A DNA stretch of 64,000 bases from Phascolomyces articulosus. Its lineage: Eukaryota; Mucoromycota; Mucoromycetes; Mucorales; Lichtheimiaceae. Shown here piece by piece: positions 1 to 64,000 of the stretch. Each line of letters begins with the position of its first letter. The first letter of the stretch is position 1. The stretch lies in NCBI GenBank assembly GCA_025677815.1, contig JAIXMP010000001.1:248001-312000 (forward strand), read 5' to 3'. Both the position numbers and the translations under genes were made by a program. The notes beneath the pieces are model-generated. The model was not told where the DNA came from. It saw only the letters and a program-made list of their open reading frames with translations, and did not search any database.

Positions 1-480
1 TTATAATATTCACACAACAGTTTTTTTTTCAAGATGTATATGAATAAATTTATTATTTACAAAAAAAAAATGAAAAGATGATGAAATGTATGCTAATATA
101 ATAATAATGATAGTAGTAATGATAATGATAATAAGAGAATGAGGGGTATATATCATGGAGATAATAAATGCACAGAAAAGTAGAGATTATGATGATAATT
201 TGGATAAGCGACAGTTTTTTTTTTGTTTGGTTGTTTTGTTTAAGCACCGGTGTTGGTACAATCAGAATTTTGCATATAGTGGTGGCCCATTTGGATCCAT
301 GAATTTTCCCACATAATCAGGAGCATTGGAAGAACGCATAGGATCATTAAGATACTTGTGGTTTACACTTGAAGAGTCAGAACATTCGGTAAATGAGAAT
401 ATAGATCCAGGTCTTGAATTAGCAGGAGAAGTAGTTGTACTACTGCTATGATCTTCAGAAGATTCCTTGGCGTGAATGGT
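1..480 (-). repeat. Truncated third copy of the palindrome-arm repeat
   Basis: This stretch aligns with the outer-middle part of the left palindrome arm (about 36276-36765) in the same orientation. It includes the 3' flank and the 3' part of the 89-aa gene. Similarity stops sharply near 475, after the bases CCTTGGC. The copy therefore lacks the first quarter of the coding region, the leader and the TATA promoter found at 36795-36931. Scattered substitutions and small indels mark it as older than the two palindrome arms, which look identical to each other. The repeat runs off the left edge of the window, so its other boundary is unknown. Confidence 0.85.
242..475 (-). pseudogene. 5'-truncated, frameshifted copy of the 89-aa palindrome gene
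   Basis: On the minus strand this encodes most of the C-terminal two thirds of the 89-aa protein at 36526-36795 (SRPGSIFSF, YLNDPMRSSNAP, HYMQNSDCTNTGA). An extra T near 288 breaks the frame around the conserved KDPMG segment. The N-terminal 20 or so residues and the promoter are missing. It is a fragment, not an expressible gene. Its value is as evidence that the 89-aa gene belongs to a dispersed family. Confidence 0.8.
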
Positions 481-15774: not shown

Positions 15775-16357
15775 GATGGAAAAGTAATTGAAATAAAAAA
15801 AAAAGAAGGTGAAAGAAGATAAGAAAATAAAAAAAAAAAAGTAGAAAAAGAAAGTTTTATATATAAATTGAATAAAATTCAATCCAATTATTATGAACGT
15901 AGTAATAGTAATTTATAGACAAGGGGAGAAAAAGTACAAAAGGCCGGTAACTTTCTATATTTAACCAATAAGGGGAAAAAGATGAGAGAGTGAAATAAAA
16001 AACCTTATTCCCCCTTGCTTTTTTCTTCCCTTTTCCCTTTCTTTTTCTCACACACACGTCGATCCATTCGTTTGAATGTGAATAAATAAGAACAACAAAA
16101 TGCATGCAAATGCAGTTTTACACTTATAAAAAAATATCACCCCAAGTTTTGTAAACTTTATTAGAGTTGAAGATCCTCTTCGTTTTGTTCAAGGTGTCTA
16201 TGCAATCTCTATATTTATATATATAATAAAAAAATAATAATAATAAGGATAAAACACAAGATCGACGCCCAACAAAAAAAAAAAGGACCACATCTCTCCC
16301 CACTCCCCTTGAGTTGATTAATTTACACATATCTCATACAGAAACAAAAACAATCCC
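15775..16357. other. Intergenic, A/T and pyrimidine tracts
   Basis: Contains the 5' leader of the Lst2-like gene (on the minus strand a T-rich tract upstream of its ATG) and the 3' end of the next minus-strand gene. A possible tiny terminal coding exon of that gene lies at about 16319-16333. Nothing else was seen. Confidence 0.45.
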
Positions 16358-19233: not shown

Positions 19234-20440
19234 TACAGGCGTTTTAAGTTTTCAGAAAAAAAAAAAGTAATGTTCATACCGGAGAGCGGTCTTTTTAATT
19301 TTTATTTCGGGCATCATTGGAAAACGGGTGGTACAAAAATAGCAAATCTACCAATCTTTTTTATGCGAATTGTTTGGCAAAGGACAAAAGTGTGTTGCCG
19401 TTGGATAGGAATATGAAGTATGTTTATTTGGATCGATTGATAAAAATTTTTAGGGATGGATGTAAAGAAAGTTTATTATTAATTATGAAATAATATATAA
19501 GAGTCATAAATATATATATATATATATATATATTTAGTTTAGCAGACAATTATAGTAGCATGATGACTGGCATATGAAATAATTTTTTATATAGGAAAAG
19601 AAAAAGGATAAAAAAAAGTGTGTTGTATATATATATTTTATAGTAACTTACTAATTAGCATATATTAGTACAAAATCCAATAATCCGACATAGCGGGGAT
19701 AAGTAAATCAATCACTTAAGCAAAAGAACAATAATAAAATGAAAAATGATCTGGTGATGATAAAAGAAAAGAGTAATAGTTATTTATGATAATAATAATC
19801 AAGGTATATATATATATAGATAGATAGATAGATGGAATAATCAGATATAGTAAGGAAAGTATATATATATCTTTGACTAACCAACATTATGTCACTTTAT
19901 AAAAAAAAAGCAGCATGATGACAATTCCAGAAAATCATAATTATAATTCACACACACACACATGAAGTGAATGTCCGAACTTGTATAATAAATTTTGGCT
20001 ATTATAGTAAAGATATATAAATATATATAAATATATCTCTCTTATTGTTATTAATCATACAATCACACATTCACTGATGTTTCACACTATAGTCACATAT
20101 ATACTCCTAATAAAAATAAATCGTTCAATAAGAGAGAGAAAGAGAGAATAATAAGTAATAAATTATATAATAACTAATAACTAAAATATAATAATAAATA
20201 AATAATAATAATAACAATAATAATAAATTCTATTCTTAAAATCAGCTATTTTCTTTCTTGTTCTTCCCTTTTCTCTTTTCTCTTTTTTTCTTTTTCTTCT
20301 TCTTTCCTCTCTCCACCCCCCTTTTTTTTTCTTTTCAGTGGCGCCCTTTTTATATATATATATATATACATAATACATATATATTTATATTTATTATTAT
20401 AATAATAGTAATAATACATTTTTTTTTATCTATTGGGTTC
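19234..20440. other. Intergenic region rich in microsatellites
   Basis: Holds (AT)n at about 19508-19534, a short GATA run at about 19818-19834, (AC)n at about 19950-19960 and AAT-type repeats at about 20185-20228. A pyrimidine-rich tract (20250-20340) precedes the next gene. Frames here translate to low-complexity residues only. It probably contains both promoters of the divergent gene pair on either side. Confidence 0.6.
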
Positions 20441-26752: not shown

Positions 26753-27126
26753 TGTCGTGATAATTATGGCGGATCAATACCAAGCCAATAGAAATGGAGA
26801 TAACAGAAGAGTAGTGATAAAATAAAGAGTAACGTGAAAGATGTCGTTTATTGTTTTAATGGTCAGGGGTATTTATATGTTTTCTAACTACTTGTGATAA
26901 TAATAAATTATATAATAAAACTAATGATAATAATATGTATACGTGGAATAATGGAGGATGCGATACGTGTTCATGACTGTCAATTGAATACGTGTTCGAA
27001 TAATTAATAAGATGATGGATGATAAATACGTGGCATAATAAAATGCAAATACGATAGCAGCGATAAGGTGTTACAAAAATAAATTAAAAAAGGAAATGGT
27101 AGTAACCCTTATTTTTAGTTACGACA
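26753..27126 (-). repeat. 3' LTR of the Ty3/gypsy element
   Basis: 374 bp, identical to 31716-32089. On the element strand it starts TGTCGTAACT and ends TCACGACA, giving the short inverted ends TGTCG/CGACA. The pol stop codon (TAA at 27121-27119) lies inside its first eight bases. Confidence 0.95.
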
Positions 27127-30100: not shown

Positions 30101-30709
30101 ATGGATCTTCCATGTATCGAGCTCCCAATCAGGTGTAGGTTGAACAGTTTTGAGCCAATCACGACCAAGGATTAGGTCAAACTTTGTATCAAGAACATAT
30201 GCTGAAGCCTTATGTTTATAACCTTGTGCCTCCAGTGCCAATGTAGCTTGCTTGTTGATGGATAAAAGATGACCACCAGCAGTTTCAACATCACGACCTT
30301 GTACGAATATAGTTGGCAGACCCATAGCAACTTTTGTCGATACATAGCTACCCGAAGCGCCAGAATCAATCAATACTTTTACATCACGACCGTTACACGA
30401 CATTAAATACAGTGGTAAATCAGTTTCTTTTATTGACAATAATGAATCAAAGTAACTACTATCTGCCTCTAATGTTTGGGCTAGCAACGAGGAACCAGCA
30501 TCTTGTCCTTCCGATAAATCGATCAGTTCTCCTTCTGGCTCCACTCGTTCTCCTTCTTGAATAGCATTAAGGGATGGATATGAACGCGAAGGGACTCCCT
30601 TTAATCCCGACGCGTTTGACCTTTTCCCTGGTTGGATCGGGTTTGACCTTGACGACCTTGACGTCGTGGTGACGGACAGAAACGTGCGATGTGACCGAAA
30701 CCACCGCAA
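27119..30709 (-). CDS. pol: Pol polyprotein (protease, reverse transcriptase, RNase H, integrase)
   Basis: An open frame of about 1,196 codons in the -1 frame relative to gag, overlapping it by about 109 bp. Its first listed codon is TTG, so it is very likely made as a Gag-Pol fusion by -1 frameshifting at 30622-30628. Domains in order: aspartic protease (VLIDSGASGSYVS, about residue 112); reverse transcriptase (LPFGLTNAPPTFQ and catalytic YLDDILIFS); RNase H (ETDASDFGAGGVLLQ, LSDHHPLKYF); integrase with the HHCC finger (HAGRTTIHHLMKTRYWWPNM, CPQCQ) and core DDE residues (WHLDFIGELP, LTDRGANF, TNSKVERTNG). A basic C terminus ends in the LTR. No stop or frameshift was seen. Confidence 0.95.
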   Translation of the reverse strand: MRWFRSHRTFLSVTTTSRSSRSNPIQPGKRSNASGLKGVPSRSYPSLNAIQEGERVEPEGELIDLSEGQDAGSSLLAQTLEADSSYFDSLLSIKETDLPLYLMSCNGRDVKVLIDSGASGSYVSTKVAMGLPTIFVQGRDVETAGGHLLSINKQATLALEAQGYKHKASAYVLDTKFDLILGRDWLKTVQPTPDWELDTWKIHKNNQEYILRPYHKRSIPELSYLLSHRQVQRIDRKKNMGEIFLCYVKPEAVVSKELPNKEVESLVAEYKDVFQDQLPGLPPVREVEHAIETGNADPISRPPFKMSPLELDELRRQLKELLDLGLIRPSKSDWGAPVLFVRKADGSMRMCVDYRAINRLTKRQSTPLPRIDECLEKLSGARFFSSIDLRSGYHQVRITEEDIPKTAFNTRYGSFEFLVLPFGLTNAPPTFQRLMNSVLGDLLDKSAMCYLDDILIFSKTKEEHEQHVRQVLDKLREVKLIANLKKCDLFKTELEFVGFRVSAEGILPSKAKIKAIQEWPQPTNVQEVRQFVGLASHYRRFIQGFASIAAPLTELTKGTGAKKRPIVWSDVCEKAFLEIKDRMTAAPLLLPPNPELPYTIETDASDFGAGGVLLQQGPDGMMHPLAFESKKFSVAERNFPAQERELLAILHCLRQWRCFIEGREYIVLSDHHPLKYFRSQKKPTPRLTRWIAEIELYDPNIQYKPGKENHVPDLLSRRDGPECVTHEPSLEPDYLYAVKAIQETDWPKFYAKPEQHWPPMYKDILKKHKDKFVVENNVVFRFVKTVNDGVKRAEFVLFARRADLVQDFHKSYGHAGRTTIHHLMKTRYWWPNMLSDIQDWLTTCPQCQLAANADRKVHHAPMKPLNIPSAFARWHLDFIGELPTTVNKNRWLLVAVDYATNWTICRAISDATGEAIADFIYTEIVLKFGAPAEILTDRGANFMSGVLNSYLGRIKVNHTLTSAFHPRTNSKVERTNGILKQMIRKYCNGRIHLWDQFVEPSVFACNVRKHRTTGFSPFFLVYGQEPVLPGDHLRPFMDISESTQEDSLAVSSRAQEVHRLRETRARAEQRLKQNALKDKALWDAALKPQKFLVNDHVLMRHENKFSLEFNWKGPFKIIASRPNRDIYQLEDLHGKIYDSWVHTDRLRPINNDSEITSDPWFDPTAARAAERRYMHASNRIALLSEDVQHSGERILS
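27131..27139 (-). promoter_or_regulatory. Polypurine tract
   Basis: On the element strand GGGGAGAGG lies four bases before the 3' LTR. This is the expected position for plus-strand DNA priming in LTR retrotransposons. Confidence 0.75.
30583..30628 (-). promoter_or_regulatory. Programmed -1 ribosomal frameshift signal between gag and pol
   Basis: The heptamer GGGAAAA (30628-30622 on the minus strand) sits in the gag frame as G GGA AAA, the canonical X XXY YYZ slippery form. About five bases later a structure can form: AACGCG (30616-30611) pairs with CGCGTT (30588-30583). Inside it, AAGGGAGTCCCTT (30601-30589) is a second hairpin. The gag stop TAA (30603-30601) lies within the structure. A one-base slip back at the heptamer continues as RSNASGLKGVPSR in the pol frame. 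Confidence 0.75.
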
Positions 30710-31689
30710 TTGTAGCAGTCCTTTTCGTCGTTGTTACCAACACGGAAGTTATTTGGACCACGCCAATTGTTACCACCACGATCTGATGAACGCCAGTTTG
30801 AACCTTGTCTTCTTGGTCGGATAGCATCCAAATCCATCGGCGCGATACCAGATGAACGGAGATACTCGGGTGCAAATTGTTGTTGTTGATAAGGACGTTG
30901 TTGGAACGAGGGATGATTATTTTCTATTTGGATGGGTTGGCTATATTGTTGAGCTGCTTCAACAGCTAATGCTAACCGCATTGCTTCGTCAGTATTCATT
31001 GGGAACCGGGTCATGACTTGTAAACGGATGCTTGGGTTTAATCCTCGTTGGAAACGGTCCAAAGCTTCTTCATCTCTCATTGATGGTACCGATGACCAGG
31101 CAGCTTGGAACTGAGACACGTAAGTGGCAACGGTACTTGTTTGGAATAGAGCGGCCAAACGATCACGAGCTAATTGTGCATGATTGGGAGGATTGAAATT
31201 GGCAAGTAACCGTTTCTTGAAGTCCAACCATTGCTTGCAATCACCCAGAAGCTCCTGTTGACGCCACCATGTGTCTGCTTCGTCGCGCAGCAGGGTGGTA
31301 GCATAAGCTACCCATTGCGTTCCATCCAGTCCAGCCATCGTAAGGTATCGTTCCACTGATCGAGCCCAACCAATAGCGGCGTCCAAACTTCTATCACCAT
31401 GATACGTGTCAGGTTCACGTATGCGGGCACGGAAAATGGGAGCGGAGTCTTTCTTGGTTAGAACTTGTTTTAACGCTTGGATGAGAGTGGCAATATCGTT
31501 ATTTGGTTGTTGTTCTGATACTTCTTGTACTTGTCTTGGTTGTGGAACTTCGAAAGAAACTTCTTGTCTTGTTGTGGTAAGTACTTCTTGTGCGGCATTA
31601 GGTATGTAAGTATCTTCATCAGGAATAGGCTGTTGTACTCGATACCCTTGAAAATTCTGAGCGTTATACGGATTGTTTTCTTGAGACAT
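30601..31689 (-). CDS. gag: Gag capsid/nucleocapsid protein
   Basis: 362 aa starting at ATG 31689, 17 bp downstream of the primer-binding site. A retrotransposon capsid region is visible (DTWWRQQELLGDCKQWLDFKKRLLANFNPPN, ARDRLAALFQTSTVATYVSQFQ). A CCHC zinc knuckle follows (CYNCGGFGHIARFC, about residue 326), with an Arg/Gly/Gln-rich basic tail for RNA binding. The frame is intact. It forms the particle that packages the element RNA. The pol frame overlaps its last 36 codons. Confidence 0.95.
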   Translation of the reverse strand: MSQENNPYNAQNFQGYRVQQPIPDEDTYIPNAAQEVLTTTRQEVSFEVPQPRQVQEVSEQQPNNDIATLIQALKQVLTKKDSAPIFRARIREPDTYHGDRSLDAAIGWARSVERYLTMAGLDGTQWVAYATTLLRDEADTWWRQQELLGDCKQWLDFKKRLLANFNPPNHAQLARDRLAALFQTSTVATYVSQFQAAWSSVPSMRDEEALDRFQRGLNPSIRLQVMTRFPMNTDEAMRLALAVEAAQQYSQPIQIENNHPSFQQRPYQQQQFAPEYLRSSGIAPMDLDAIRPRRQGSNWRSSDRGGNNWRGPNNFRVGNNDEKDCYNCGGFGHIARFCPSPRRQGRQGQTRSNQGKGQTRRD

Positions 31690-31705
31690 TATTAACCTTT
31701 TCTTT

Positions 31706-31713
31706 CGCTACCA
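31706..31713 (-). promoter_or_regulatory. Primer-binding site, complementary to initiator tRNA-Met
   Basis: On the element strand TGGTAGCG begins two bases after the 5' LTR. It is complementary to the 3' end CGCUACCA of fungal initiator tRNA-Met. An 8-base match of this kind is what Ty3 uses to prime reverse transcription. Confidence 0.85.
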
Positions 31714-31715
31714 AT

Positions 31716-32089
31716 TGTCGTGATAATTATGGCGGATCAATACCAAGCCAATAGAAATGGAGATAACAGAAGAGTAGTGATAAAATAAAGAGTAACGTGA
31801 AAGATGTCGTTTATTGTTTTAATGGTCAGGGGTATTTATATGTTTTCTAACTACTTGTGATAATAATAAATTATATAATAAAACTAATGATAATAATATG
31901 TATACGTGGAATAATGGAGGATGCGATACGTGTTCATGACTGTCAATTGAATACGTGTTCGAATAATTAATAAGATGATGGATGATAAATACGTGGCATA
32001 ATAAAATGCAAATACGATAGCAGCGATAAGGTGTTACAAAAATAAATTAAAAAAGGAAATGGTAGTAACCCTTATTTTTAGTTACGACA
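31716..32089 (-). repeat. 5' LTR of the Ty3/gypsy element
   Basis: 374 bp, identical to 26753-27126. It presumably carries the element promoter and transcription start; no TATA box position is assigned. Confidence 0.95.
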
Positions 32090-32093
32090 ACTG
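32090..32093. repeat. Target-site duplication, right copy (ACTG)
   Basis: Matches ACTG at 26749-26752 on the other side of the element. Confidence 0.8.
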
Positions 32094-32858: not shown

Positions 32859-33682
32859 TTATTGACTTTTGCTAGCAGCTTCCTTAGCAGCATTATTAAT
32901 CTTTGCTTCCACCCTTTCGACTCTGCTTTGGAGAAATGTAAGGTTGGGTCGAAAGATACGTGCATACAAGAATTCAGCGCCCTATTGCATATAAACAAAT
33001 AATAACAACCCCAGTCATTTTCTTTATGAGTTTATCATTCATACCATCTTTACCATCCACCCATCTAATGCATATCCTCTTACCCGGAATTGTGGCAAAG
33101 AAAGCCAAAGGACAAATACAGTCTTGAAAACAAAATAGAATGGGAACCAATACACTAATGCATCCGAAAAGTATTCCAACGATTGTAAAAATCCAAATAC
33201 ACTCCAATAGGTTAACCATTGTTTCTTGGAAGCCGCACTTGTTGCTTCAATTGCCTTAAACTATAAAAAAAATTAGTCATGATAGGCCTTCAATGATTTA
33301 AACCATAATCATTTTTCTATTTCCTATCACTTACTGATTCATAAGCTACGAAGAAGAAAATTGTTGTAAAAAAGAACAATGATAAAGTCAGTTACATAAA
33401 TATATGAAAAAGAAAAAACCTTCTTTTTATTTTCAAAATAACCAGATAAAACAAGGTAAAACAAGAATACATACCAGGGTAAACCCATCCAATCAAATCC
33501 GTAATCAACTGACCAGCAACGTTGAAAAAGATTAAGAAAAAGACCAAACTACCAACACCCAAGGCAATATATACTTTGGGGACTTTGGTTTTTGCTTCAG
33601 CGTCACGTAAAGTTTTATATTGAGATAATGATCGATCCAACTGAGATTCATAATCTTTAGCCTTTGCAAATGCTGCGTCCAT
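32859..33682 (-). CDS. YOP1: Yop1/REEP (TB2/DP1/HVA22) ER-shaping membrane protein
   Basis: Four exons on the minus strand (33682-33475, 33345-33335, 33260-33084, 32981-32859) give 172 aa. The family pattern is clear: an N-terminal amphipathic stretch (AKAKDYESQLDRSL), a hydrophobic hairpin (PKVYIALGVGSLVFFLIFFNVAGQLITDLIGWVYPAYES), then FKAIEA, KKQWLTYWSVFGFLQSLEYF, DALVYWFPFYFVFKTVFVLWL and a basic tail. Members curve tubular ER membrane together with reticulons. Exon 2 is only 11 bp and supplies the conserved PAYES, so skipping it would break the frame. Length matches yeast Yop1. Confidence 0.92.
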
Positions 33683-34652
33683 GATTGATTGATTGATTGA
33701 TTTGTTTTGTCTCTGGAGGTAATAGTTGTTGTTTGTGATAAAAAACAAAAAAAAAGTAGAAAAAATAAGAAGTTGTTTAAAATAAATGAAAGAGAAAAAA
33801 GAGAGAGAGAGAGAAAAAAAGACCACAGACTCTTCTCTTATTATTTAGTGTTTCACCTTGTCACACTGTGTCATTTGAGCGCATGATTAAAAGGTGTGCC
33901 ACGATCATGATTAAAAAAAAAAAGATGCGCGTTCCTATTTTTTTGTTGTCTTTTTATTATTGCATGAAAATGATGATGTATCATCCGCACATACACACAT
34001 ACACTATTTCTTTATGAGCATAATTAAGATTACCTGCTGTTTATTAGACATGATCTATCATGATCGATCGACACACACTTAAAAGTTACGATAGGATAAC
34101 AAGATAAAAAGAACTTGACAGAAGAAATTATATAAAAGAGAGCAGTAGGTCACGATGGTCAAATTCTTTATATTGCATGAAACCCACATGATCAAGCGTT
34201 TTCTTCTTGAACAGAATATATAACTATCCTGAGCCACCTTTTCTCAATATCAACCCATTATTATTAAACATTGGTCCTGAAATAATCCTCTGCTACAACA
34301 ATACTAATATATGTACATGAGAACTATTATTAAAATTATATATATATTTATAAGAGAATAATAAGGTTTTATAAAATAAGAAAATCTCCAAGTAAAAAAC
34401 GTATAGATAAAGAAGTTTTGGTTAAGTGTTTTTCATGTGTGTGCATAGAAATAAAGTCATTCAGCCACGGAATGAAGAAGTATTTATTTTTAAATTTGAA
34501 TGTTATCAAAAGGGTTTGGGTGACAAGAACAAGGAAATTACAAAACAATAAGAAGAAGAAGAAGAAGAAGAAGCAAGTAATGATTATATAAAAGAGAGGA
34601 GAGGGTTTGAAGCATTAATCGCTACTACGTACTATAAGGAAGGTTAATCTAA
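33683..34652. other. Intergenic, no gene seen
   Basis: Contains the leader of the Yop1-like gene, with a repeated ATTGATTG tract just before its ATG and a GA-rich block at about 33790-33825. It also holds the 3' flank of the next minus-strand gene, including an AAG run at about 34551-34575. A cluster of GATC/ATGATC motifs at about 34050-34070 is of unknown meaning. Confidence 0.5.
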
Positions 34653-35516
34653 TCATAACATTAAATAAGAAGACCCTCTGGGTTGCCATCCATCGTCATC
34701 TTTGGGGCTACTACTTATCATGCTTTCTGGTATATCGCGAGCTTTACCGTTATACTGTCTTTTATCATGGTTAGATGAATGCTTTTTATGGTCACCTTTG
34801 CCGTTGGAAGAATGCTTTTTATGGTCATCTTTGCTGTTAGAAGAATGTTTTTTATGGTCACCTTTGTGGTTGGAAGACCCCTTTTTATGGCGATCATCGC
34901 CGTGCTTTTTGGAAGAGTTACCATTCGATTTTACAGGGTCACCCTTGTGTTTAGAAGAAGAAGAAGAAGGTTTTTTGTGAAGTATAGTCGAACGATTACC
35001 CGTTTGGTTTTCGTCGGGTTTAGTAGCAAGGTTGGGTGATGGACTAGCATCGCTCTTCGTACCGTTGTATTCAGGGTAGCTATGATCGGGTGAAGTGTGT
35101 TCCATAGTGCTAGCACCTTTATCGTCGCTCCCAGTACCAAAGATTGAAATGACATTTGTGACATTGAGTATACAAATAAGAATCGCAACAAACACGGTTA
35201 GGCCTACTCCAATAATAATACACCACTTTGTTGTTTCCTGATCGAAAGCTTTTCTTCTAGCACGATATTCAGCACTTTCTTCTCCATTTCCTACCTCAGC
35301 TTCTGCTCCTTGACCGTCTCCACCTGTTACTCCACCTTCTTGTTGAGTTGCTGAACTACCGGGTATTCCTTCACTTTGTTGTTGAATTGAACCTGCTGTT
35401 GCAACTGTACTTCTACCTACAGAGTAATGCATACTTCCAGCAACAGAGTCATATGCACCGCCATATGAACTATTAGCAGAAGTGCCAGGTAGACTGTCTC
35501 CGGGATTTACTGACAT
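34653..35516 (-). CDS. Single-pass membrane protein with tandem HKKHSSN repeats (287 aa)
   Basis: One exon from ATG 35516. The family is not recognised. The first 95 residues are Gly/Ser/Gln-rich and polar. A membrane helix follows at about 98-122 (WCIIIGVGLTVFVAILICIL). The rest is strongly basic, low complexity Ser/Lys/His, with heptad-like repeats (KGDHKKHSSN) about residues 215-250 and a C terminus SSYLML. With no signal peptide it would be a type I or II single-pass protein. Its TATA box and leader lie inside the palindrome arm, whose edge is only 30 bp upstream of the ATG. A broken gene with a similar membrane segment lies at the other edge (39681-39979). Confidence 0.75.
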   Translation of the reverse strand: MSVNPGDSLPGTSANSSYGGAYDSVAGSMHYSVGRSTVATAGSIQQQSEGIPGSSATQQEGGVTGGDGQGAEAEVGNGEESAEYRARRKAFDQETTKWCIIIGVGLTVFVAILICILNVTNVISIFGTGSDDKGASTMEHTSPDHSYPEYNGTKSDASPSPNLATKPDENQTGNRSTILHKKPSSSSSKHKGDPVKSNGNSSKKHGDDRHKKGSSNHKGDHKKHSSNSKDDHKKHSSNGKGDHKKHSSNHDKRQYNGKARDIPESMISSSPKDDDGWQPRGSSYLML

Positions 35517-35705
35517 AATTTAATGGATGACTACTTCTTCTTGTGATATGGATATAAGACGTAATTATAGATTGTTGTTCTATAGTTGACGATATATAAA
35601 ACAACGGGCAACCAAAGCAGTAGTAGTAGCTTTAAACAATGAGTATTAAAAGTTATTGGTTGATAACAAAAAGGAATTGCGTTCAATTTGTCATTTGGTA
35701 TCTCC

Positions 35706-35714
35706 CTATTTATA
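35706..35714 (-). promoter_or_regulatory. TATA box of the left outward gene
   Basis: TATAAATAG on the minus strand, inside the left arm and about 190 bp before ATG 35516. It is followed by a GGGAGA stretch. The identical copy is at 39490-39498. Confidence 0.6.
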
Positions 35715-36525
35715 TATATATATATATATTTTACAAATCGTATATCATCCTTGGCCATATATGAAAAAAAAGGGATATATCATCATAGGATAATGTTGCT
35801 AATATTCTGTTGTCTTTTCTGTTGTTAATGGGTCTTAGGTGAGTAATAAAATTTTTTCTATAGTAAACTGTTGTTGGATTGTCGCTAACATATAATCAAT
35901 AATGGGGAGAGGATATGCATTATACAAATGGTGTGTGAATTGTTGACAGACTGCGATGTTCAATAATGGCGATAGAATTTGTTGAATAGCAACAAAATTA
36001 TGTCAAACTACATTATCCCCTGAATTACTGTCAACATTATATGTATAGAATAGACTGTTGTTCTATAGAAACGCAATATTATTACACGAAAATACATCCT
36101 TGGATGATGATGTTGCTGTTGTCGTAAGCAAAAGACATTTTCACAGTTCCATTTGAAAATATGTATTATGAGCACCTTTTTTTTAAAAAAAAAACTCTTA
36201 TCTTATATATATGCCGTACGTTAGTTGAATATGAAATAACAACAACATTGTCTATAGGAAGCAAACGTAAAAAGTTATAATATAAACACAACATTTTTTT
36301 TTTCAAGATGTAATAAAAATGTATATGAATAAATTTATTATTTACAAAAAAAAAAATGAAAAGATGATGAAATGCATGCTAATATAATAATAATGATAGT
36401 AGTAATGATAATGATAATAGTAGAATGAAGGGTATACATCATGGAGATAATAAATGCACAAAAAAGTAGAGATTATGATGATAATTTGGATAAGCGACAA
36501 ATTTTTTTTTGTTTGGTTGTTTTGT

Positions 36526-36795
36526 TTAAGCACCGGTGTTGGTACAATCAGAATTTTGCATATAGTGGTGGCCCATTGGATCCTTGAATTTTCCCACATA
36601 ATCAGGAGCATTGGAAGAACGCATAGGATCATTAAGATACTTGTGGTTTACGCTTGAAGAATCAGAACATTCGGTAAATGAGAATATAGATCCAGGTCTT
36701 GAATTGGCAGGAGAAGTAGTTGTACTACTGCTATGATCTTCAAAAGATTCCTTGGCAAAGGTAAAGTATTTGGTAATTGATTTGAAAGCAGGCAT
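36526..36795 (-). CDS. 89-aa protein of the palindrome repeat, left copy
   Basis: One exon, ATG at 36795. The family is not recognised. The N-terminal 17 residues (MPAFKSITKYFTFAKES) could form a short amphipathic helix. The rest is Ser/Thr-rich and polar, with NHKYLNDPMRSSNAPDYV and GKFKDPMGHHYMQNSDC as the most complex parts. No signal peptide or membrane helix is seen. It has its own TATA box (36923-36931) and an A/C-rich leader, and is transcribed away from the palindrome centre. An identical copy lies at 38409-38678 and a decayed one at 242-475. Preservation of a full frame with standard promoter spacing suggests a real gene. Confidence 0.7.
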   Translation of the reverse strand: MPAFKSITKYFTFAKESFEDHSSSTTTSPANSRPGSIFSFTECSDSSSVNHKYLNDPMRSSNAPDYVGKFKDPMGHHYMQNSDCTNTGA

Positions 36796-36922
36796 TATTA
36801 TAGTAGTTGTAGTGATTGAAGTGTTTATTGTTGTAAAATGTAGAAAAGTAATAAAAGTAGTGGTAAAAGTAGTAGTACTTGGATAAGTGAATGAAGTTGG
36901 GGGAAATGTACAAGAAGTGTGT

Positions 36923-36931
36923 CTTTATATA
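36923..36931 (-). promoter_or_regulatory. TATA box of the left 89-aa gene
   Basis: TATATAAAG on the minus strand, 128 bp upstream of the ATG at 36795, followed by a C/A-rich leader typical of a strong fungal promoter. Mirror copy at 38273-38281. Confidence 0.65.
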
Positions 36932-37570
36932 CTTTTTGAAATTGTTAAATGGTGACCCGAAAACCGTTTCAACCTTCGGCGGTGGAACGGAAGCACCCTT
37001 TTCCGGTTGATTTTGATTGGATACCGGACTTGAAATCGATCCCAAATGCCCTATTTGCGGCAAATCCTATTGATTTCGCCAAAACGATAAATTAATGCAT
37101 GAGGATTTTCAGCTGATTTAGCGAATCAAATTACGTCATATAAAAATAGTTTTGCATTGAATTCTATTCATCACGTTCTTCCGCAGATCATAAAACTTTT
37201 GCTATTCCCTTCTTTATGTTACTATGTACTTCTTTAACCTTCATTACTTTGTGTCATTTGCTTTTATTAATCAAAAATAGAATGAAAGAAAATGACAAGT
37301 TGCAAGTAAATGGCTACAGTTTTATATTTACTTTTCATTTATACATAAGCAATAGGAAAATATCAGCAATCACAAAAGATATAAAAATATGTATTTAACA
37401 TGATCTCATTGTCTCTTTCTATGTTCTTTATCTTGCTTATTTATTCCAACTTGATCTATATAAATTTATACCATCTAATGAAAAAAAAAAGTTCTTTAAA
37501 AAGAATGATACACTATGATATTGTAAAAGGTCCATACCAACTATTATTATTAATTCGTTCAACACCATTT

Positions 37571-37633
37571 AATTGTTCTTTTTTTTTAACTTTTTAAAGC
37601 GTAGCTCATATTAAATGATACAAAAAGATAATG
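37571..37633. other. Palindrome spacer (63 bp)
   Basis: The only unpaired part of the inverted repeat: a T run, then CTTTTTAAAGCGTAGCTCAT and an A-rich end. The diverged repeat at 60285-60750 contains a recognisable relative of this spacer directly joined to one arm. The spacer is therefore part of the ancestral unit and not a later insert. Confidence 0.7.
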
Positions 37634-38272
37634 AAATGGTGTTGAACGAATTAATAATAATAGTTGGTATGGACCTTTTACAATATCATAGTGTATCATT
37701 CTTTTTAAAGAACTTTTTTTTTTCATTAGATGGTATAAATTTATATAGATCAAGTTGGAATAAATAAGCAAGATAAAGAACATAGAAAGAGACAATGAGA
37801 TCATGTTAAATACATATTTTTATATCTTTTGTGATTGCTGATATTTTCCTATTGCTTATGTATAAATGAAAAGTAAATATAAAACTGTAGCCATTTACTT
37901 GCAACTTGTCATTTTCTTTCATTCTATTTTTGATTAATAAAAGCAAATGACACAAAGTAATGAAGGTTAAAGAAGTACATAGTAACATAAAGAAGGGAAT
38001 AGCAAAAGTTTTATGATCTGCGGAAGAACGTGATGAATAGAATTCAATGCAAAACTATTTTTATATGACGTAATTTGATTCGCTAAATCAGCTGAAAATC
38101 CTCATGCATTAATTTATCGTTTTGGCGAAATCAATAGGATTTGCCGCAAATAGGGCATTTGGGATCGATTTCAAGTCCGGTATCCAATCAAAATCAACCG
38201 GAAAAGGGTGCTTCCGTTCCACCGCCGAAGGTTGAAACGGTTTTCGGGTCACCATTTAACAATTTCAAAAAG

Positions 38273-38281
38273 TATATAAAG
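38273..38281 (+). promoter_or_regulatory. TATA box of the right 89-aa gene
   Basis: TATATAAAG, 128 bp upstream of ATG 38409; mirror of 36923-36931. Confidence 0.65.
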
Positions 38282-38408
38282 ACACACTTCTTGTACATTT
38301 CCCCCAACTTCATTCACTTATCCAAGTACTACTACTTTTACCACTACTTTTATTACTTTTCTACATTTTACAACAATAAACACTTCAATCACTACAACTA
38401 CTATAATA

Positions 38409-38678
38409 ATGCCTGCTTTCAAATCAATTACCAAATACTTTACCTTTGCCAAGGAATCTTTTGAAGATCATAGCAGTAGTACAACTACTTCTCCTGCCAA
38501 TTCAAGACCTGGATCTATATTCTCATTTACCGAATGTTCTGATTCTTCAAGCGTAAACCACAAGTATCTTAATGATCCTATGCGTTCTTCCAATGCTCCT
38601 GATTATGTGGGAAAATTCAAGGATCCAATGGGCCACCACTATATGCAAAATTCTGATTGTACCAACACCGGTGCTTAA
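38409..38678 (+). CDS. 89-aa protein of the palindrome repeat, right copy
   Basis: Identical in sequence to the product of 36526-36795 and transcribed outward on the plus strand. Transcripts from the two copies would be the same and point in opposite directions. Read-through transcription of either arm across the centre would give a long hairpin RNA. An AATAAA-type signal near 38863 lies within the arm's 3' region. Confidence 0.7.
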   Translation: MPAFKSITKYFTFAKESFEDHSSSTTTSPANSRPGSIFSFTECSDSSSVNHKYLNDPMRSSNAPDYVGKFKDPMGHHYMQNSDCTNTGA

Positions 38679-39489
38679 ACAAAACAACCAAACAAAAAAA
38701 AATTTGTCGCTTATCCAAATTATCATCATAATCTCTACTTTTTTGTGCATTTATTATCTCCATGATGTATACCCTTCATTCTACTATTATCATTATCATT
38801 ACTACTATCATTATTATTATATTAGCATGCATTTCATCATCTTTTCATTTTTTTTTTTGTAAATAATAAATTTATTCATATACATTTTTATTACATCTTG
38901 AAAAAAAAAATGTTGTGTTTATATTATAACTTTTTACGTTTGCTTCCTATAGACAATGTTGTTGTTATTTCATATTCAACTAACGTACGGCATATATATA
39001 AGATAAGAGTTTTTTTTTTAAAAAAAAGGTGCTCATAATACATATTTTCAAATGGAACTGTGAAAATGTCTTTTGCTTACGACAACAGCAACATCATCAT
39101 CCAAGGATGTATTTTCGTGTAATAATATTGCGTTTCTATAGAACAACAGTCTATTCTATACATATAATGTTGACAGTAATTCAGGGGATAATGTAGTTTG
39201 ACATAATTTTGTTGCTATTCAACAAATTCTATCGCCATTATTGAACATCGCAGTCTGTCAACAATTCACACACCATTTGTATAATGCATATCCTCTCCCC
39301 ATTATTGATTATATGTTAGCGACAATCCAACAACAGTTTACTATAGAAAAAATTTTATTACTCACCTAAGACCCATTAACAACAGAAAAGACAACAGAAT
39401 ATTAGCAACATTATCCTATGATGATATATCCCTTTTTTTTCATATATGGCCAAGGATGATATACGATTTGTAAAATATATATATATATA

Positions 39490-39498
39490 TATAAATAG
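39490..39498 (+). promoter_or_regulatory. TATA box pointing out of the right arm
   Basis: TATAAATAG preceded by a TA run, identical to 35706-35714. It lies about 190 bp before the ATG at 39681. Confidence 0.55.
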
Positions 39499-39680
39499 GG
39501 AGATACCAAATGACAAATTGAACGCAATTCCTTTTTGTTATCAACCAATAACTTTTAATACTCATTGTTTAAAGCTACTACTACTGCTTTGGTTGCCCGT
39601 TGTTTTATATATCGTCAACTATAGAACAACAATCTATAATTACGTCTTATATCCATATAACTAGCAGCATTCATAAAATA

Positions 39681-39979
39681 ATGTGCACAAGTCAAAGAGG
39701 AAGTGTAGTTGGAATTATAGCTGAAAGTATAGCTGCAGCTACAGGCGGAAACCAATGCGATAATGGAAGAACAAGTGGAAAAAGTCAATGAAGAAGAGAA
39801 TTGTTAGAGAAGGTGCTTGTCAGTGTTGTCTAAGTATGGCTATAGGCGTACCTATTCTTGTTGGAGCTTTTATATGTTTTCTCGGTGTCGTAAATGCTAT
39901 TCCATTTTATGAATTGGACATCGATGAAGGTGATATAATCAAAAACCAGATTATTGGTATATATCCCAATACTATATAA
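39681..39979 (+). pseudogene. Broken small membrane-protein gene at the right palindrome edge
   Basis: ATG 39681 opens a 36-codon frame (MCTSQRGSVVGIIAESIAAA and on) that ends at a TGA. That stop overlaps the ATG of a second frame at 39788-39979 (63 codons), which holds one membrane helix (LSMAIGVPILVGAFICFLGVV). Joined by a one-base shift, the two parts would mirror the N-terminal and membrane layout of the left gene at 34653-35516. The helix KWCIIIGVGLTVFVAILICIL can be compared with CCLSMAIGVPILVGAFICFL. I infer a frameshifted, truncated paralogue; two real small proteins remain possible. Confidence 0.45.
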
Positions 39980-40954
39980 TGATTTATAGTGTTAATGAGC
40001 CGATATTAACTTAAATGATTGGGTAGAATAATATAGGGAGTGCAAAATATTTAGTATGTTATTTGTAATAATAATTATTACTGTCCGTTTTTTAGTTGTT
40101 ATCATCAATCCATCCAGAAATCGATTCTCCGTGGCAGATGGGTCTTCATAATCAACATATCCCCTGTTGTAAACACTCGATATCTTTTCTTGCTTCTCTT
40201 TTTACATTCTATAATACCCAATAGTACTCATATCTGTTCGATTTTGCTTTTATCTCTTCTTTTGGATGGGAGATTTGAGATTTTGATATATATTTATGTC
40301 AAGCGCTCCAGTAATTTTTTTTTTTGAAAGAAGCTTTTTTATTAATAATGTTTATACAAGTATAATATACCATTTCTTGAAAATTATGTTTCCATTAATC
40401 AGACAAACAGTATATTCTAGCGGAAGTGATACACATGAATACAACCCAAAGTATGAAAGCTTTGTTTTTTGTCCTACATGAATTTCGAAACTATTGAGCT
40501 AACTGTCAAATCTCACTTTCCATTCAGCTAAAATGGCCAAAGCTCTATAGCCACATACGTTGTGCATCGTTTAGAATTAAAACATTCATAGTTTATAATA
40601 TATATATAAATATCGTTGCCACAATAGTATATTGGTAATAAATAATGGTATTAACGCCTCGCTCACAGTAATCAAAAATGGCTGATAATAATATACTTAG
40701 GAAGAAGCGAAAAACAAAAAGTGATAAATGGTACTGAGAACATATCCCTTTGAGCATAGGTTTTCTAAAATAGCTGATGTGATCGAAAGTACCAACAATG
40801 GATTTTTATGATCAAAGAAAACTTGCATAAATGATTCATGGCACCATTTTATAGGGGGGACTTTTTCGACTGGGTTTTTTTTTTAAAAAAAAAGTAATTC
40901 CACACTTTCTTTTTCTGACACGTCTCCACCTTATATCTTTATACTCCATTTTCA
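39980..40954. other. Intergenic, no gene seen
   Basis: AT-rich. It contains a direct T10A9 tract at 40875-40893 shortly before the SRP receptor gene, probably part of its promoter. An open frame at 40296-40481 is short, has no recognisable features, and is not called. Confidence 0.5.
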
Positions 40955-43577
40955 ATGCTTGATCAGTTTGCCATCTTGTCCAAAGGAGGCTTTGTCCTTT
41001 GGCAAAAAACATTTATCCCGGTCATGGGATCCCCGATCGATACTCTGATCAAGGATGTCCTTATTGAAGAACGGGCTGGTACTAATATCTTTTACAAGGA
41101 CAGTTATGCACTAAAATGGACTTTTGCAAACGAAGTTGATCTTGTGTTTGTTGTAAGTAGTTTTTATTTTATCAACGACTTATATTATTAAGAAATATAT
41201 TAATGTTATTTATTTACTTTTATAATTAGGTGGCATTCCAAAAAATATTACAATTACCCTATGTTGATGAACTATTGGAAACAGTGAAACAATTATTCAT
41301 AAAGACATTTGAACAAGATATTAAAAGTAATAATGGCATCGAAGGTGACTATGCTTCATTTGACGAGATGTTTAACAAGTTATTGCGACAATTGGAAGAA
41401 AAGCATGCCTCGGTAGGATATACAAAGAATAGACGGGAGAAAGTGTTTGTATAACTAAACTTCTATTATTGTTGTTTTTTTTTATTTATAATAAAGAATC
41501 GTCAACGGGCACCGAGAAAATTCGAACAAACAAAAAAGTACGAGAATACATTAAAAGGATCTCAAGAAGCTAATAGCCCAAGTAATAAAAGCAGATCAGG
41601 TAAATTACAACAAGTTCTTGGATAGGTGGGGTGAATGGATTGGATGATAGGAAAGGAGACGAGGGGAGTTATTGGCGTTATCTAAAATAAAGTGTAATTA
41701 CTGCAGCGAATAGCGTTACCCCAGCTGGCCTCGATCAAGATGAAATTACCAAGAATATTCAAGCTCTTAAACTCCAATCAAGTCCTAGAACTGGCCCACG
41801 AGCAAAGAAGGGTCGACAAAACAACAACTCCCCCAAATCACCCAATATGAATAATGAGTATGTTTTGTTGTTGTTGTTAATATTATTGATTGAGAGTATT
41901 TATATTTATATAAACAGCACGAAACTAACATTCAAAGAAAACCTTATTGAACAAATTCATTTAGTGAGAGTTTGAAAAAGAAGAAATCCCAAAAACAAGC
42001 ACGAGTATGGGAAGGACAAATTGCTCGAGGTGAAATGGAATCATTGGATTATAGTAGTAAGGCAGCTTTGACGAGTGAAGAGGAGGCAGCAGTTGCAGCA
42101 CAACTTGCAGATCCTACAAAATATGGTACTGTCAACAAAGATGGCGTTTATGAAGTAATGGATGTTGATCAAGGCGGTGATAGCGATCTTGATGAAGAAG
42201 ATGAAGAAGAATATGATATATTAAAACAAAACGAAAAGACTGAAAGTGAAGGAGGAAGTGGTGGTGGCATGTTCTCATTCTTTAAGAATATGACGGGACA
42301 ACGTGAATTGACAGCAGATACATTGGATCCGGTACTAAGTGATATGAAGGAACATTTGATCAAAAAGAATGTTGCAAGTGATATTGCAGAACATTTATGT
42401 CAAAGTGTTCGAACAAGTTTACTTGGCAAAAAAATTGGCAGCTGGGGCAGTAAGTTTTTTGATGTGATCGGATTTGATACTAGTGGTTGGGTGGTAAATT
42501 TTGTTGCTGACAATGGTGTTGAATATTATAGGGGTCTCAACCATGGTTCGTGATAGTATGGAGGCTGCATTGAAACGAATTTTAACACCCAAGACATCGC
42601 TCGATATCCTCAGAGATGTAGAACAAGCAAAAGCAGAAAGGAGGCCCTATGTCATTTCATTTATTGGTGTCAATGGTGTTGGCAAGGTATTATCATAGGG
42701 GATCGGAGAGAGATTTTATAATAATGTTATATATACATTGTAGGGTATTCTAACATTAAATTTATCATTATATTCTGTTATGTAGTCTACCAATCTGAGT
42801 AAAGTTTGCTTTTGGCTACTTCAAAACAATTACAAAGTTCTTATTGCTGCATGTGATACTTTCCGAAGTGGTGCTGTAGAACAATTACGAGTACATGCAC
42901 GAAATCTCCGTGCATTACAAACAAGTGGGCAAGGATCTGTTGAATTATTTGAACGTGGATATGGCAAGGATTCTGCTGGCATTGCAAAGGAAGCCATTAG
43001 TTTTGGTAAGAAAAATATCTCTATTATGATGGGTTCACTACATCTTATACTGTGATTCTATCGATAACTAATAACTTTATATATAAATAGCCACTTCTAA
43101 TCATTTTGATGTGGTGTTGATCGACACGGCTGGACGTATGCAGGATAATGAGCCACTTATGCGGGCGTTAGCTAAATTAGTGGCTGTCAATAATCCTGAC
43201 AAGATTATTTTTGTTGGAGAAGCCTTGGTCGGCAATGAAGCAGTTGATCAGCTTACTAAATTCAATCAATCATTAAAGGACTTTTCAGGATTACAAAACC
43301 CACGGAATATTGATGGCATGATCTTGACAAAATTCGATACAATTGATGATAAGGTAAGATGAAAGGAGAGGCAAGGAGAGAATCTTTAAGTCTGGTAATT
43401 GTACTAATAACTGTTGTTTTCAACCTTTTATTTTACGAAAAAAAAAAGGTCGGTGCGGCGTTATCAATGACATATATCACAGGTCAACCTATTTATTTTG
43501 TGGGCACTGGACAAACATATACAGATCTTAAAAACCTTAGAGTATCTCATGTTGTCAATAGTCTTTTGCGGAAATAA
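40955..43577 (+). CDS. SRP101: Signal recognition particle receptor subunit alpha
   Basis: Nine exons (40955-41152, 41230-41412, 41497-41599, 41707-41857, 41965-42449, 42532-42686, 42786-43005, 43091-43353, 43449-43577) give 628 aa. The N terminus ([18 protein letters not shown]) is the SRX domain that docks on the beta subunit at the ER. A charged linker follows, then the NG domain: [15 protein letters not shown] (G1), [26 protein letters not shown] (G3), [31 protein letters not shown] (G4) and [14 protein letters not shown]. It is the GTPase that receives SRP with nascent chains for co-translational targeting. Length equals the family norm and all GTPase motifs are present. The next gene starts only 123 bp downstream. 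Confidence 0.97.
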
Positions 43578-61448: not shown

Positions 61449-61450
61449 TA

Positions 61451-63917
61451 TTTTTTTATGTAATTGCTTTAATGATTAAAAGAGAATGTTATATTTATTT
61501 CAATAGAATAAAATCAATATTAATTTTCTTTATATTATTAGGCTGTTTCCTATGCATATATAGACTAATAATGTTGATCATTAGTAGAATCATTATATCG
61601 TAACAGCGTTTTTATTTATTTTTATTAAAATAACAACACAAGTATAGAGACAAACTTAGCTTTTGCGACATTCTTAGCCGTAATCATCATTTGTAAAATG
61701 ATTACGTTTCCAAGAGTCACCACGAGGAGGTGATGTCGCGTCGACTCTCCCGTCCGTTTTGGTGCTGTCGTCCATGTGGGTGTTGTCGTCTTGTTGATGC
61801 CGTTGCTATTCATTTGGTGCTGTCAGCCGTGTGGGCGCTGTCGTCTTGCTGACGATGTGCGGTGCTGGCGTCCTTTTTTTTTGTTGAATTGTCCGTCTGC
61901 TGAATCGCCCATTTTGTTCAAAAACCCATTTTTGTTCGCGTACATCCGTTTGCATTAATATTGATTTAATAACAAGATCTCATTAGTTTTATAAAGTTAC
62001 ATTGTTAAAAAATATGCACAACTTACCATTTCCGTTTGTGTAATGATGAAGAAGCAAAAGAAAAAAATTCGGATCCGCGGAACAGGAAGTTCTTTTATAG
62101 CTTTTCAATTGAATATCCGAAAAGTGACTCTTTTATGGCGCAGTAGTGATGAGTGGAATCAGCTGTACCGTTATAATATGATGATATTATATAGTGAAAA
62201 ACTGGTCAAAATGAAAGAAGTAAATGTCAGAAAAGAAAGGAAAGAGTAGTAATAGACAATATCACTGTTGATGTGGAAAAATGTTTAAGTTGTCTGACTG
62301 TTCCTGAAATGTTTCACATTTCTATAAAAAGTCAATGATCTGCACACTGTGGCGTTGCCTTTTGACTAAACTAGGGTTAGTTTGGTTGGAATAATAATGA
62401 ACTACTTTATTGTATACTTCACACATTCATTGCAATCTCATTTACTTGATTCCTGTAAACGTTTCAACAGGAATAGTTGATTGTCTTGCAAAAATACAGG
62501 TGCCTGTTTCGTTTCGTAAGTTTTATGTTTCCGTCAGGGAACTTATCTCTGAATATGCTTTTTTGTTGATTCATAGAGTAGGAGCTACTTATAAATGGGG
62601 TGCTCATTCTTTTTTATAGCTTGCAAATCAAACTGAAGCAAAAGGAAAGAAAAAACAATGCATGACTATATATTCAACAGCACCCAAGGCCCATCTATTG
62701 ACATTCACTTCGCCTTGTTTGAAGACTAAGAATATTTTCATGATACACCTTTTTTGACAAGGGTGGCATTTTATTTATTTATAGGCTTCCTCTTGAATAA
62801 AGTTTTTCTCATGATTTGTTATTGCAAGTGCACTTATTAGTCTTCCTTGAAATTTTCCATGAGTGGAAATCCAGCGACGAGTGGAAAAATAAGCGATAAA
62901 TGACATGAATGATGATATTGAAGTAACAAAAAACAAGAAAGCAAGGAATAGATGAGATCCCCATCCAAACGCCTGAAAACATTCTGCATAGAACAAGAGT
63001 AAATCATATAAAAAGGGGAAAAAAATAGTTATAACCATATAAAAATATCTTGCTTATACGTTTCTTATTCAAAATTTTGTGTATGTTATTGATAAAGTAT
63101 CAAAGCAAGACGCTAAGAGAGATTACCGTTAAGTATTCGCAATCCAAGTCTACGTAATATTGCATTTTTCACTATCGCAGATCGGTTTATTTTGACGGAT
63201 TAGTATGGAAAACGAACTGGTGATTTTATTTTGCGGAAAAACAATAATTATCAAAGGGTAAAGGTAAGAGGTAGGTGGTTTTTTATTTTGGATAGCAGTT
63301 ATACTATTGACATTTTTTGTTGATGGAAGGGCCTTTTTGGCTTATAACTCGACAAATAAGATTTCATTTATTCTATACACTATGTTATACTATTCTATGC
63401 ACAATGTTCTCTGCTACTTAATTTTGTATCATAAACAAAATAGATTGGATTTCTGGGATTGATGACTATGTTATAACGAAGAATATATCCAACGTATTCA
63501 GAATGGACATATCTATGGAAAAAACAACAAATATATTTTATTTACACAATTACAGAGTCATTGGAAAAACCATGTGAGTTACAGTGTGTTTATGTTATAA
63601 ACGATGAATTATCCACCGAACATTTGTCAGCTTTCTTAATTTACAAACCAAAGCTGGTTCACCCTTTGGTCGTCATGATGAAAATGGAGCGGAAGACCTG
63701 GATGAAAAAGATTATTGTTGTAATTCAAAATTCTCTTTTGTGTAAATTAGAAGAGCAGATGGCAAAAATATTAACGAAGGTATAGATGCACGCATACTAT
63801 CTAAATTTATATTAGAGTAGTTCTTGAAGTATGCACATCATTTTATTATTCTTATGAATAAAAGAAAAAAAAAGCATAAAACATTATCTATTTGGTTATA
63901 ATATGATATATTCTTCC
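61451..63917. other. Gene-poor region with weak coding remnants
   Basis: No confident gene. A relatively GC-rich block at about 61735-61890 contains two diverged copies of a roughly 55-bp unit (GGTGCTGTC...GTGTGGG.G.TGTCGTCTTG). On the minus strand it reads as DDNTHMDDSTKTDGRVD followed by TSPPRGDSWKRNHFTNDDYG and a stop, with a frame change upstream: a possible decayed gene end. Frames at 62043-62249, 62410-62619 and 63561-63785 are short and unrecognised. Confidence 0.5.
62775..63038 (-). CDS. Possible small membrane protein (87 aa), doubtful
   Basis: ATG at 63038. The predicted product has a hydrophobic N terminus (MVITIFFPFLYDLLLFYAEC) and a second hydrophobic helix (HLFLAFLFFVTSISSFMSFIAYF). 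A basic, polar tail follows (STRRWISTHGKFQGRLISAL). No family is recognised. It sits alone in repeat-rich DNA and could be an exon remnant of a larger membrane protein. Confidence 0.25.
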   Translation of the reverse strand: MVITIFFPFLYDLLLFYAECFQAFGWGSHLFLAFLFFVTSISSFMSFIAYFSTRRWISTHGKFQGRLISALAITNHEKNFIQEEAYK

Positions 63918-64000
63918 ATTCTATTCTTTATCGATAAAAATGGAAGGCATATAAAGTAATGAAGATTAAAGAAGTACATAGTAACATAAAGAAGGGAATA
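63918..64000 (+). repeat. Start of another palindrome-repeat copy, opposite orientation to 60285
   Basis: Aligns with the right arm at about 37918-38000; the end of the window (AAAGAAGTACATAGTAACAT, then AAAGAAGGGAATA) is an exact match. It is inverted relative to the copy at 60285-60750 and continues beyond the window. Confidence 0.85.

What the first reader, a model, noticed from the sequence alone, without database searches (positions are those of the whole stretch)
35546..39658. A 2,025-bp near-perfect inverted repeat with a 63-bp spacer
Arms 35546-37570 and 37634-39658 mirror each other with a constant coordinate sum of 75204 at every landmark and identical encoded frames. Palindromes this long and perfect are unstable, so it is either very young, maintained by arm-to-arm gene conversion, or selected. 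Transcription through it would give a long hairpin RNA, a natural source of small RNAs in fungi with RNA interference. The two flanks differ, which argues against a simple fold-back sequencing chimera.
Basis: partly seen in the sequence, partly recalled or inferred. Interest (0 to 1): 0.85.

Follow-up and report, generated by a model that had tools for sequence, protein, structure and literature searches.

The report
Young gene-pair palindrome from DNA repair
In what appears to be the mould Phascolomyces articulosus, two back-to-back copies of a small gene form a perfect 2-kb DNA mirror image that was probably made recently when the cell mended a break, and a related single copy elsewhere in the genome still shows the order before the join; it is a well-preserved case of a known kind of rearrangement, not a new genetic element.

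Summary
The genome is inferred to be Phascolomyces articulosus. Each arm carries an 89-aa gene, with relatives in other Mucorales, pointing outward. A single-copy relative on contig C48 has the order X - spacer - arm - right flank. The palindrome's spacer ends in 17 bp of repeat X, and the join to the right arm lies on 5 bases (AAATG) present in both X and the arm, so the palindrome derives from a C48-like order. The two flanks differ but are diverged homologues, and the arm is closer to C48 than to the left-flank relative wherever both could be compared. The left unit was probably overwritten by an inverted copy of the right unit: strand invasion, copying and microhomology joining, or fold-back. 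Of 14 neighbourhoods of related blocks held, 4 (this one included) have a near-identical inverted pair, none a direct one; an 80-kb control stretch has neither. Gene directions do not support a hairpin-RNA role. Long-read confirmation is missing. Closest precedent: the C. elegans F44E5.4/F44E5.5 palindrome.

The parts
35546..37570 (+). Left arm (A), 2,025 bp; probably the overwritten copy
   Evidence: 0 mismatches to the right arm; closer to the right-flank-type unit on C48 than to the left-flank-type unit at C1:326k wherever both were compared
37571..37616 (+). Spacer, first 46 bp: continuation of the A unit's upstream region
   Evidence: The same sequence follows A in C48, with one substitution and one T-run difference; its start has a diverged counterpart on C45
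37617..37633 (+). Spacer, last 17 bp: end of repeat unit X (GATACAAAAAGATAATG)
   Evidence: With the next 5 bases, 22 of 22 identical in C48 and in both C45 copies; 1 mismatch in C13 and C1:1327k; position checked
37634..37638 (+). Junction microhomology AAATG, shared by X and by the inner end of the right arm
   Evidence: C48 reads AAATGATACG (X continues), the window reads AAATGGTGTT (arm begins); 5 or more at a random 63-bp junction of this window: 479 of 50,000 draws
37634..39658 (+). Right arm, reverse complement of A; probably the native unit
   Evidence: Colinear with C48 through the arm into the right flank to 40653, apart from a 228-bp stretch absent from C48
36526..36795 (-). 89-aa gene, left copy
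   Evidence: ORF; relatives in other Mucorales; 4 synonymous, 0 non-synonymous changes against C48
38409..38678 (+). 89-aa gene, right copy
   Evidence: Same as the left copy
34653..35516 (-). Left flank (LF): 287-aa ORF with a membrane-segment-like stretch (read by eye); relative at about C1:324.8-325.7k
   Evidence: no Pfam family at E up to 1
39659..40653 (+). Right flank (RF): diverged relative of LF with stops in all three frames; second copy on C48 (86%)
61564..64000 (+). Left part of a second, wider inverted pair (C1:309564-312956 / 326568-329960, 3,393 bp, 99.8%)
1..471 (+). Partial relative of arm A (94%) containing part of the 89-aa gene

Best explanation
A recent inverted duplication made by double-strand-break repair between two old, head-to-head paralogous gene units. 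Shown: the arms are identical; a single-copy order X-spacer-A-RF exists on C48; the window spacer ends in 17 bp of X, and the junction sits on AAATG, shared by X and the arm; arm A is of the right-flank lineage. Inferred: a break between the units was processed so that the left end (LF side) invaded the right unit on a sister or homologous chromatid, copied A, the 46-bp upstream piece and 22 bp of X, came off, and was joined by the 5-bp AAATG to a right end trimmed back into the arm. The result is LF - A - spacer - rc(A) - RF, with the spacer in the orientation seen. Both copies of the 89-aa gene keep 775 bp of upstream sequence, so both could be expressed; the palindrome itself needs no function.
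For: 0/2,025 differences. C48 (L009 4257-7119) is colinear with spacer, arm and right flank, and continues into X where the window turns back. The 22-bp X end at the junction is exact in C48 and both C45 copies. On the side away from A, X continues past the junction in C48, C45, C13 and C1:1327k, so the window junction is the derived state. Outer arm against C48 is 90.4% (39407-39658), much like RF against C48 at 89.3%, while outer arm against C1:326k is 76.2% (39150-39658): A is of the right-flank lineage. LF and RF are homologous. Microhomology of 5 or more by chance: 479 of 50,000, 1.0%. The observed spacer orientation follows directly from this model, whereas fold-back of the right unit predicts the opposite (reasoning).
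Against: The inner 1.04 kb of the arm is 98.6% like C48 but the rest only 90-94%, apart from about 100 bp at 97% between them, so at least one more exchange with C48 is needed. A single event cannot be separated from later arm-to-arm conversion, or from fold-back plus a spacer flip. The ancestral order on C1 itself is inferred from C48. Of four shuffle tests of flank homology, the weakest (C1:326k flank against C48 flank) was reached by 1 of 300 shuffles, and BLAST showed no LF-RF match at the arm edge. No reads or other strains were available. One 5-bp microhomology is weak evidence taken alone.
Confidence: 0.5

Rival explanations
1. Fold-back (hairpin-primed) inverted duplication: a resected end paired with itself through CATTT/AAATG, copied the arm, and was resolved by homologous recombination with the other unit; the spacer then flipped by crossing-over between the arms.
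For: 5-bp inverted microhomology at the edge of a short unduplicated spacer, as in human inverted duplications (PMC3907307, passages: 2-8 bp in 13 junctions); homology-mediated resolution is usual in yeast (PMC7467729, section 13). The flanks are homologous.
Against: Starting from the right unit, to whose lineage A belongs, it predicts the opposite spacer orientation, so an extra flip is needed. Starting from the left unit, it needs that unit to have carried right-lineage A-S-X already.
Confidence: 0.22
2. Old head-to-head pair kept identical by continuing arm-to-arm gene conversion, as proposed for C. elegans palindromes.
For: LF and RF are old homologues, so the two units look like an old inverted pair. 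A precedent of similar geometry exists: F44E5.4 locus, 2,207 bp of palindromic arms, 126-bp spacer, 99.7% (PMC1803023).
Against: The inner junction is derived from a C48-like single arrangement by a join inside X, which conversion alone does not make. No second species was available to show long persistence.
Confidence: 0.18
3. Assembly artefact (fold-back read, or false joining of repeat copies).
For: Arms are perfectly identical and four inverted pairs occur in one assembly; no reads were examined.
Against: Different flanks on the two sides; the spacer is natural sequence, also present on C48 with small differences; two of the other three pairs carry mismatches (7 in 3,393; 3 mismatches and 3 gap openings in 4,145); 80 kb of control sequence shows no repeat pair of 100 bp or more.
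Confidence: 0.06
4. Mobile element with long terminal inverted repeats.
For: Arm sequence recurs at other loci.
Against: No common termini seen: the four pairs end at different points of the blocks they share; the 63-bp spacer has no room for a transposase; the ORFs of 80 aa or more in the arms are the 89-aa gene and overlapping frames of 96 and 107 aa, none taken for a transposase by eye (of these only the 89-aa one was scanned with Pfam).
Confidence: 0.02
5. Selected hairpin-RNA source of small RNAs silencing the 89-aa gene family.
For: Dicer-dimer domain present in the genome; the arms would form a 2-kb hairpin if transcribed through.
Against: The 89-aa genes and the left-flank ORF read outward from the spacer; no Rfam match at gathering scores in 33000-42000; no RNA data.
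Confidence: 0.02

Closest known systems
C. elegans F44E5.4/F44E5.5 inverted repeat with divergent gene pair (Zhao et al. 2007, PMC1803023; first of four parts and passages seen)
   Same: Divergent paralogous genes, 2,207 bp of palindromic arms, short spacer (126 bp), 99.7% identity
   Different: There the structure is found in three species and read as maintained; here only one genome is available, and the junction shows derivation from a single-unit arrangement
Fold-back inversions / inverted duplications with disomic spacers (human: PMC3907307, passages; yeast: PMC7467729, abstract and section 13)
   Same: Inverted copies around an unduplicated spacer with 2-8 bp inverted microhomology in the human set; homology-mediated resolution in yeast
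   Different: Here both outer flanks are old paralogues and the event is interstitial; spacer 63 bp against 766-70,466 bp in the human set; the spacer orientation fits copying from the neighbour better than a simple fold-back
Inversion breakpoints with inverted duplications from staggered breaks (Drosophila; model recalled, PMC7584159 seen only in listing and start of abstract)
   Same: Pair 2 (C1:309.6-330k) has this pattern: the left copy keeps the 5' flank, the right copy keeps the 3' flank
   Different: The window palindrome has only 63 bp between its arms, no inverted segment

Membership tests
Long near-perfect inverted repeat with divergent gene pair (C. elegans type) | Near-identical long arms with short spacer | tested here: met
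   2,025 bp, 0 mismatches, 63-bp spacer
Long near-perfect inverted repeat with divergent gene pair (C. elegans type) | Paralogous gene on each arm, divergent or convergent | tested here: met
   89-aa ORFs at 36526-36795 (-) and 38409-38678 (+)
Long near-perfect inverted repeat with divergent gene pair (C. elegans type) | Structure conserved across species while sequence diverges | not testable with these tools
   The genome tool states that this genome has no relatives held
Fold-back inverted duplication | Unduplicated spacer bounded by inverted microhomology | tested here: met
   63-bp spacer, AAATG/CATTT; chance 479 of 50,000
Fold-back inverted duplication | Spacer orientation as left by copying back from the source unit | tested here: inconclusive
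   Opposite to the prediction for a right-unit source; met with a later flip, or with a left unit that already carried A-S-X (reasoning)
Terminal-inverted-repeat transposon | Fixed termini shared among copies | tested here: not met
   The four inverted pairs end at different points
Terminal-inverted-repeat transposon | Target-site duplication | not tested
   No systematic test was made
Hairpin-RNA small-RNA locus | Transcript crossing both arms | tested here: inconclusive
   ORF directions argue against it; no RNA data

The most novel reading that the evidence does not exclude
This fungus (inferred to be Phascolomyces articulosus) has an unusually active process that makes inverted duplications. 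The four near-identical local pairs found among the X/U/A repeat blocks are inverted, no direct one was found in the stretches held, they end at differing points, and one is a perfect palindrome with a 63-bp spacer. The species could be a natural fungal system for watching palindromes form and be homogenised.
Probability: 0.15. Interest if true: 0.6.

Novelty: new member of a known kind. Interest (0 to 1): 0.4.

Why it matters
Natural long palindromes with short spacers are expected to be unstable, and their origin is hard to read from the palindrome alone. Here a single-copy relative keeps the pre-palindrome order, so the direction of change and the junction can be read. The same genome offers three more young inverted pairs of related blocks, which makes formation and homogenisation testable in a long-read resequencing study.

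Tried and rejected
Transposon or MITE: the repeated 242-bp piece at the end of the C45 pair first looked like a MITE (note); one search showed it is the end of a longer unit X, and the reading was withdrawn (note). RNA family: none at gathering scores in 33000-42000. Pfam: none at E up to 1 for the 89-aa protein or the LF protein. BLAST did not show the LF-RF relation at the arm edge; shuffled alignment scores did.

Corrections made on checking: the microhomology rate printed (0.87%) kept skipped draws in its denominator; one search repeats it properly (479 of 50,000, 1.0%). The repeat scan used a filter that would miss a short-spacer palindrome; one search repeats the scan of all 14 neighbourhoods and the control without that fault, with and without low-complexity masking, with the same outcome.

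Papers: 'Phascolomyces articulosus' with 'genome' gave 0 papers; 'Phascolomyces' alone 6, none about this locus by title and start of abstract. Listings on palindromes, fold-back, fungi and inversions (20 of 21 listed; 15 of 45; 1 of 1; 15 of 66) showed no report of this locus by title and start of abstract. Seen of papers: PMC1803023 part 1 of 4 and 12 passages; PMC7467729 outline with abstract and section 13; PMC3907307 12 passages; all others listing only.

Weak points of the control: ten of the 14 neighbourhoods were scanned only within the 5-10 kb held; further weaker matches (for example C34, C36, C45:203k, C23:512k, C48:2.4k, C27, C89) were not fetched; and the four pairs were reached by following shared sequence, so 4 to 0 is not an unbiased ratio. 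The control not chosen by shared sequence is 80 kb of one contig.

Full report
Observation. The two arms, 35546-37570 and 37634-39658, are perfect reverse complements over 2,025 bp, with 0 mismatches and a 63-bp spacer. The repeat finder and self-BLAST agree. The window is G000:C1:248001-312000 of a 47.4-Mb, 110-contig genome. Two database proteins from a contig of exactly this length (2,713,739) are named Phascolomyces articulosus, a mucoralean fungus (order recalled); the species is therefore inferred.

What the arms carry. Each arm has one 89-aa ORF (36526-36795 minus, 38409-38678 plus), reading away from the spacer. A single-sequence search found 2 proteins, both from this species; the profile search found 9, including ones named from Circinella (2), Syncephalastrum, Cunninghamella and Radiomyces, and 2 without a name, with a similar C-terminal end (PDYVG...TNTGA). 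Against the C48 copy the gene has 4 synonymous and 0 non-synonymous differences. The gene is therefore probably real and conserved; it has no Pfam family. Its function is unknown and does not explain the palindrome.

Relatives of the arm in the same genome. The arm search gave 21 matches and the protein search 13. Three matter most. C48:68.3-71.1k is a single copy that runs colinearly from the spacer through the arm into the right flank, lacking 228 bp of the arm. C1:324.8-327.7k runs colinearly from a relative of the left-flank gene into the arm. C45:1378k and 1387k carry the arm's upstream region beside two further blocks, U and X.

The junction. In C48 the arm is followed by the same spacer and then by repeat X (...GATAATGAAATGATACG...); in the window the same spacer is followed by the other arm (...GATAATGAAATGGTGTT...). 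X is a longer unit also found on C13 (in both arms of a pair), C1:1325k and C45. On the side away from A it runs on past this point in C48, C45, C13 and C1:1327k; on the other side it runs on by about 300 bp in C13 and C1:1327k and by a few bases in C45, where block U begins. The last 17 bp of the window spacer plus AAATG match the X end 22 of 22 in C48 and in both C45 copies, and with 1 mismatch in C13 and C1:1327k. The window junction therefore cuts X after these 22 bp: the C48-like order came first and the palindrome is derived. The shared AAATG is a 5-bp microhomology; at random 63-bp junctions in this window 5 or more occurs in 479 of 50,000 draws.

Which arm is native. The right flank is 89.3% like C48 and the outer arm (39407-39658) 90.4%; the outer arm (39150-39658) is 76.2% like C1:326k. 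The left flank aligns at 64% over 974 columns with its relative at C1:326k. LF and RF are themselves diverged homologues: LF-RF score 424 against a shuffle mean of 299 (0 of 300 shuffles reach it; z 6.5); LF'-RF z 3.8 (0 of 300); LF-C48RF z 4.6 (0 of 300); LF'-C48RF z 3.4 (1 of 300); reversed controls z 0.0 and -0.8. So there were two old inverted units, and the left one was probably overwritten by right-lineage sequence up to 35546. The inner 1.04 kb of the arm is closer to C48 (98.6%) than the rest (97.0%, 94.2%, then 90.4% going outward), which implies a further exchange with C48. Since the arms differ at 0 of 2,025 positions while this inner part differs from C48 at about 1.4%, arm identity is younger than that exchange, or is being renewed.

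Mechanism (inferred). Strand invasion of the right unit by the broken left end, copying through A, the 46-bp piece and 22 bp of X, then joining at AAATG to the trimmed right end, gives the observed order and spacer orientation in one event. Fold-back at the same microhomology is the main rival; from the right unit it needs a later spacer flip. Continued arm-to-arm conversion may have helped and cannot be excluded.

Wider pattern. Three more near-identical local pairs of related blocks were found, each inverted: C1:309564-312956/326568-329960 (3,393 bp, 7 mismatches, 13.6 kb apart), C45:1377960-1379898/1385817-1387755 (1,939 bp, 0 mismatches, 5.9 kb apart), and C13:9767-13903/15286-19430 (4,145 aligned, 3 mismatches and 3 gap openings, 1.4 kb apart). 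They end at different points, and flank comparison shows truncated copies beside native ones; the C1 pair looks like a staggered-break inversion. Of the 14 neighbourhoods of related blocks held (the window palindrome; C1:305-330k; C45; C13; C48 at 68k and 108k; C1 at 247k, 512k and 1325k; C32; C67; C23; C50; C21), 4 have an inverted pair of at least 100 bp and 95%, and none has a direct pair of family sequence at that level within the stretch held; the only direct pair at that level is the LTR-like pair at 26753/31716 in the window. An 80-kb control stretch of C56 has no pair of 100 bp or more of either orientation. The 14 are not a random sample.

RNA idea. The genome has one Dicer-dimer match, but the 89-aa genes and the left-flank ORF point outward. 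The hairpin-RNA reading is possible but unsupported.

Verdict. A young palindrome with a readable origin; a new member of a known kind. The main uncertainty is the lack of reads and of other isolates.

Noticed in passing
C1:309564-312956 and 326568-329960 (left arm enters the window at 61564): Second inverted pair, 3,393 bp, 99.8%, 13.6 kb apart; each copy keeps a native flank on the opposite side, as expected of an inversion with staggered breaks.
   Followed up: partly
C45:1377960-1379898 and 1385817-1387755 (L013, L014): Third inverted pair, 1,939 bp, 100%; the right copy continues into related sequence on both sides, the left is a truncated inverted copy.
   Followed up: partly
C13:9767-13903 and 15286-19430 (L028, L023, L030): Fourth inverted pair, 4,145 bp aligned, 99.7%, 1.4-kb spacer, containing repeat unit X.
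   Followed up: partly
window 26753-32090: Retrotransposon-like stretch: two long ORFs (gag-pol-like by eye) between two identical 375-bp direct repeats (LTR-like), so recently inserted.
   Followed up: no
window about 60785-61452: About 670-bp repeat with roughly 26-bp terminal inverted repeats; at least 25 other places in the genome match over 500 bp or more (counts are lower bounds). Looks like a MITE.
   Followed up: no
L009 (C48) near 5849-5855: C48 lacks 228 bp of the arm (window 39179-39406), with a 7-bp overlap at the deletion point.
   Followed up: no
arm against C48, window 37634-40650: Identity to C48 steps from about 98.6% (inner arm and gene) through 94% to about 90% (outer arm and right flank), suggesting a separate exchange between contigs.
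   Followed up: partly
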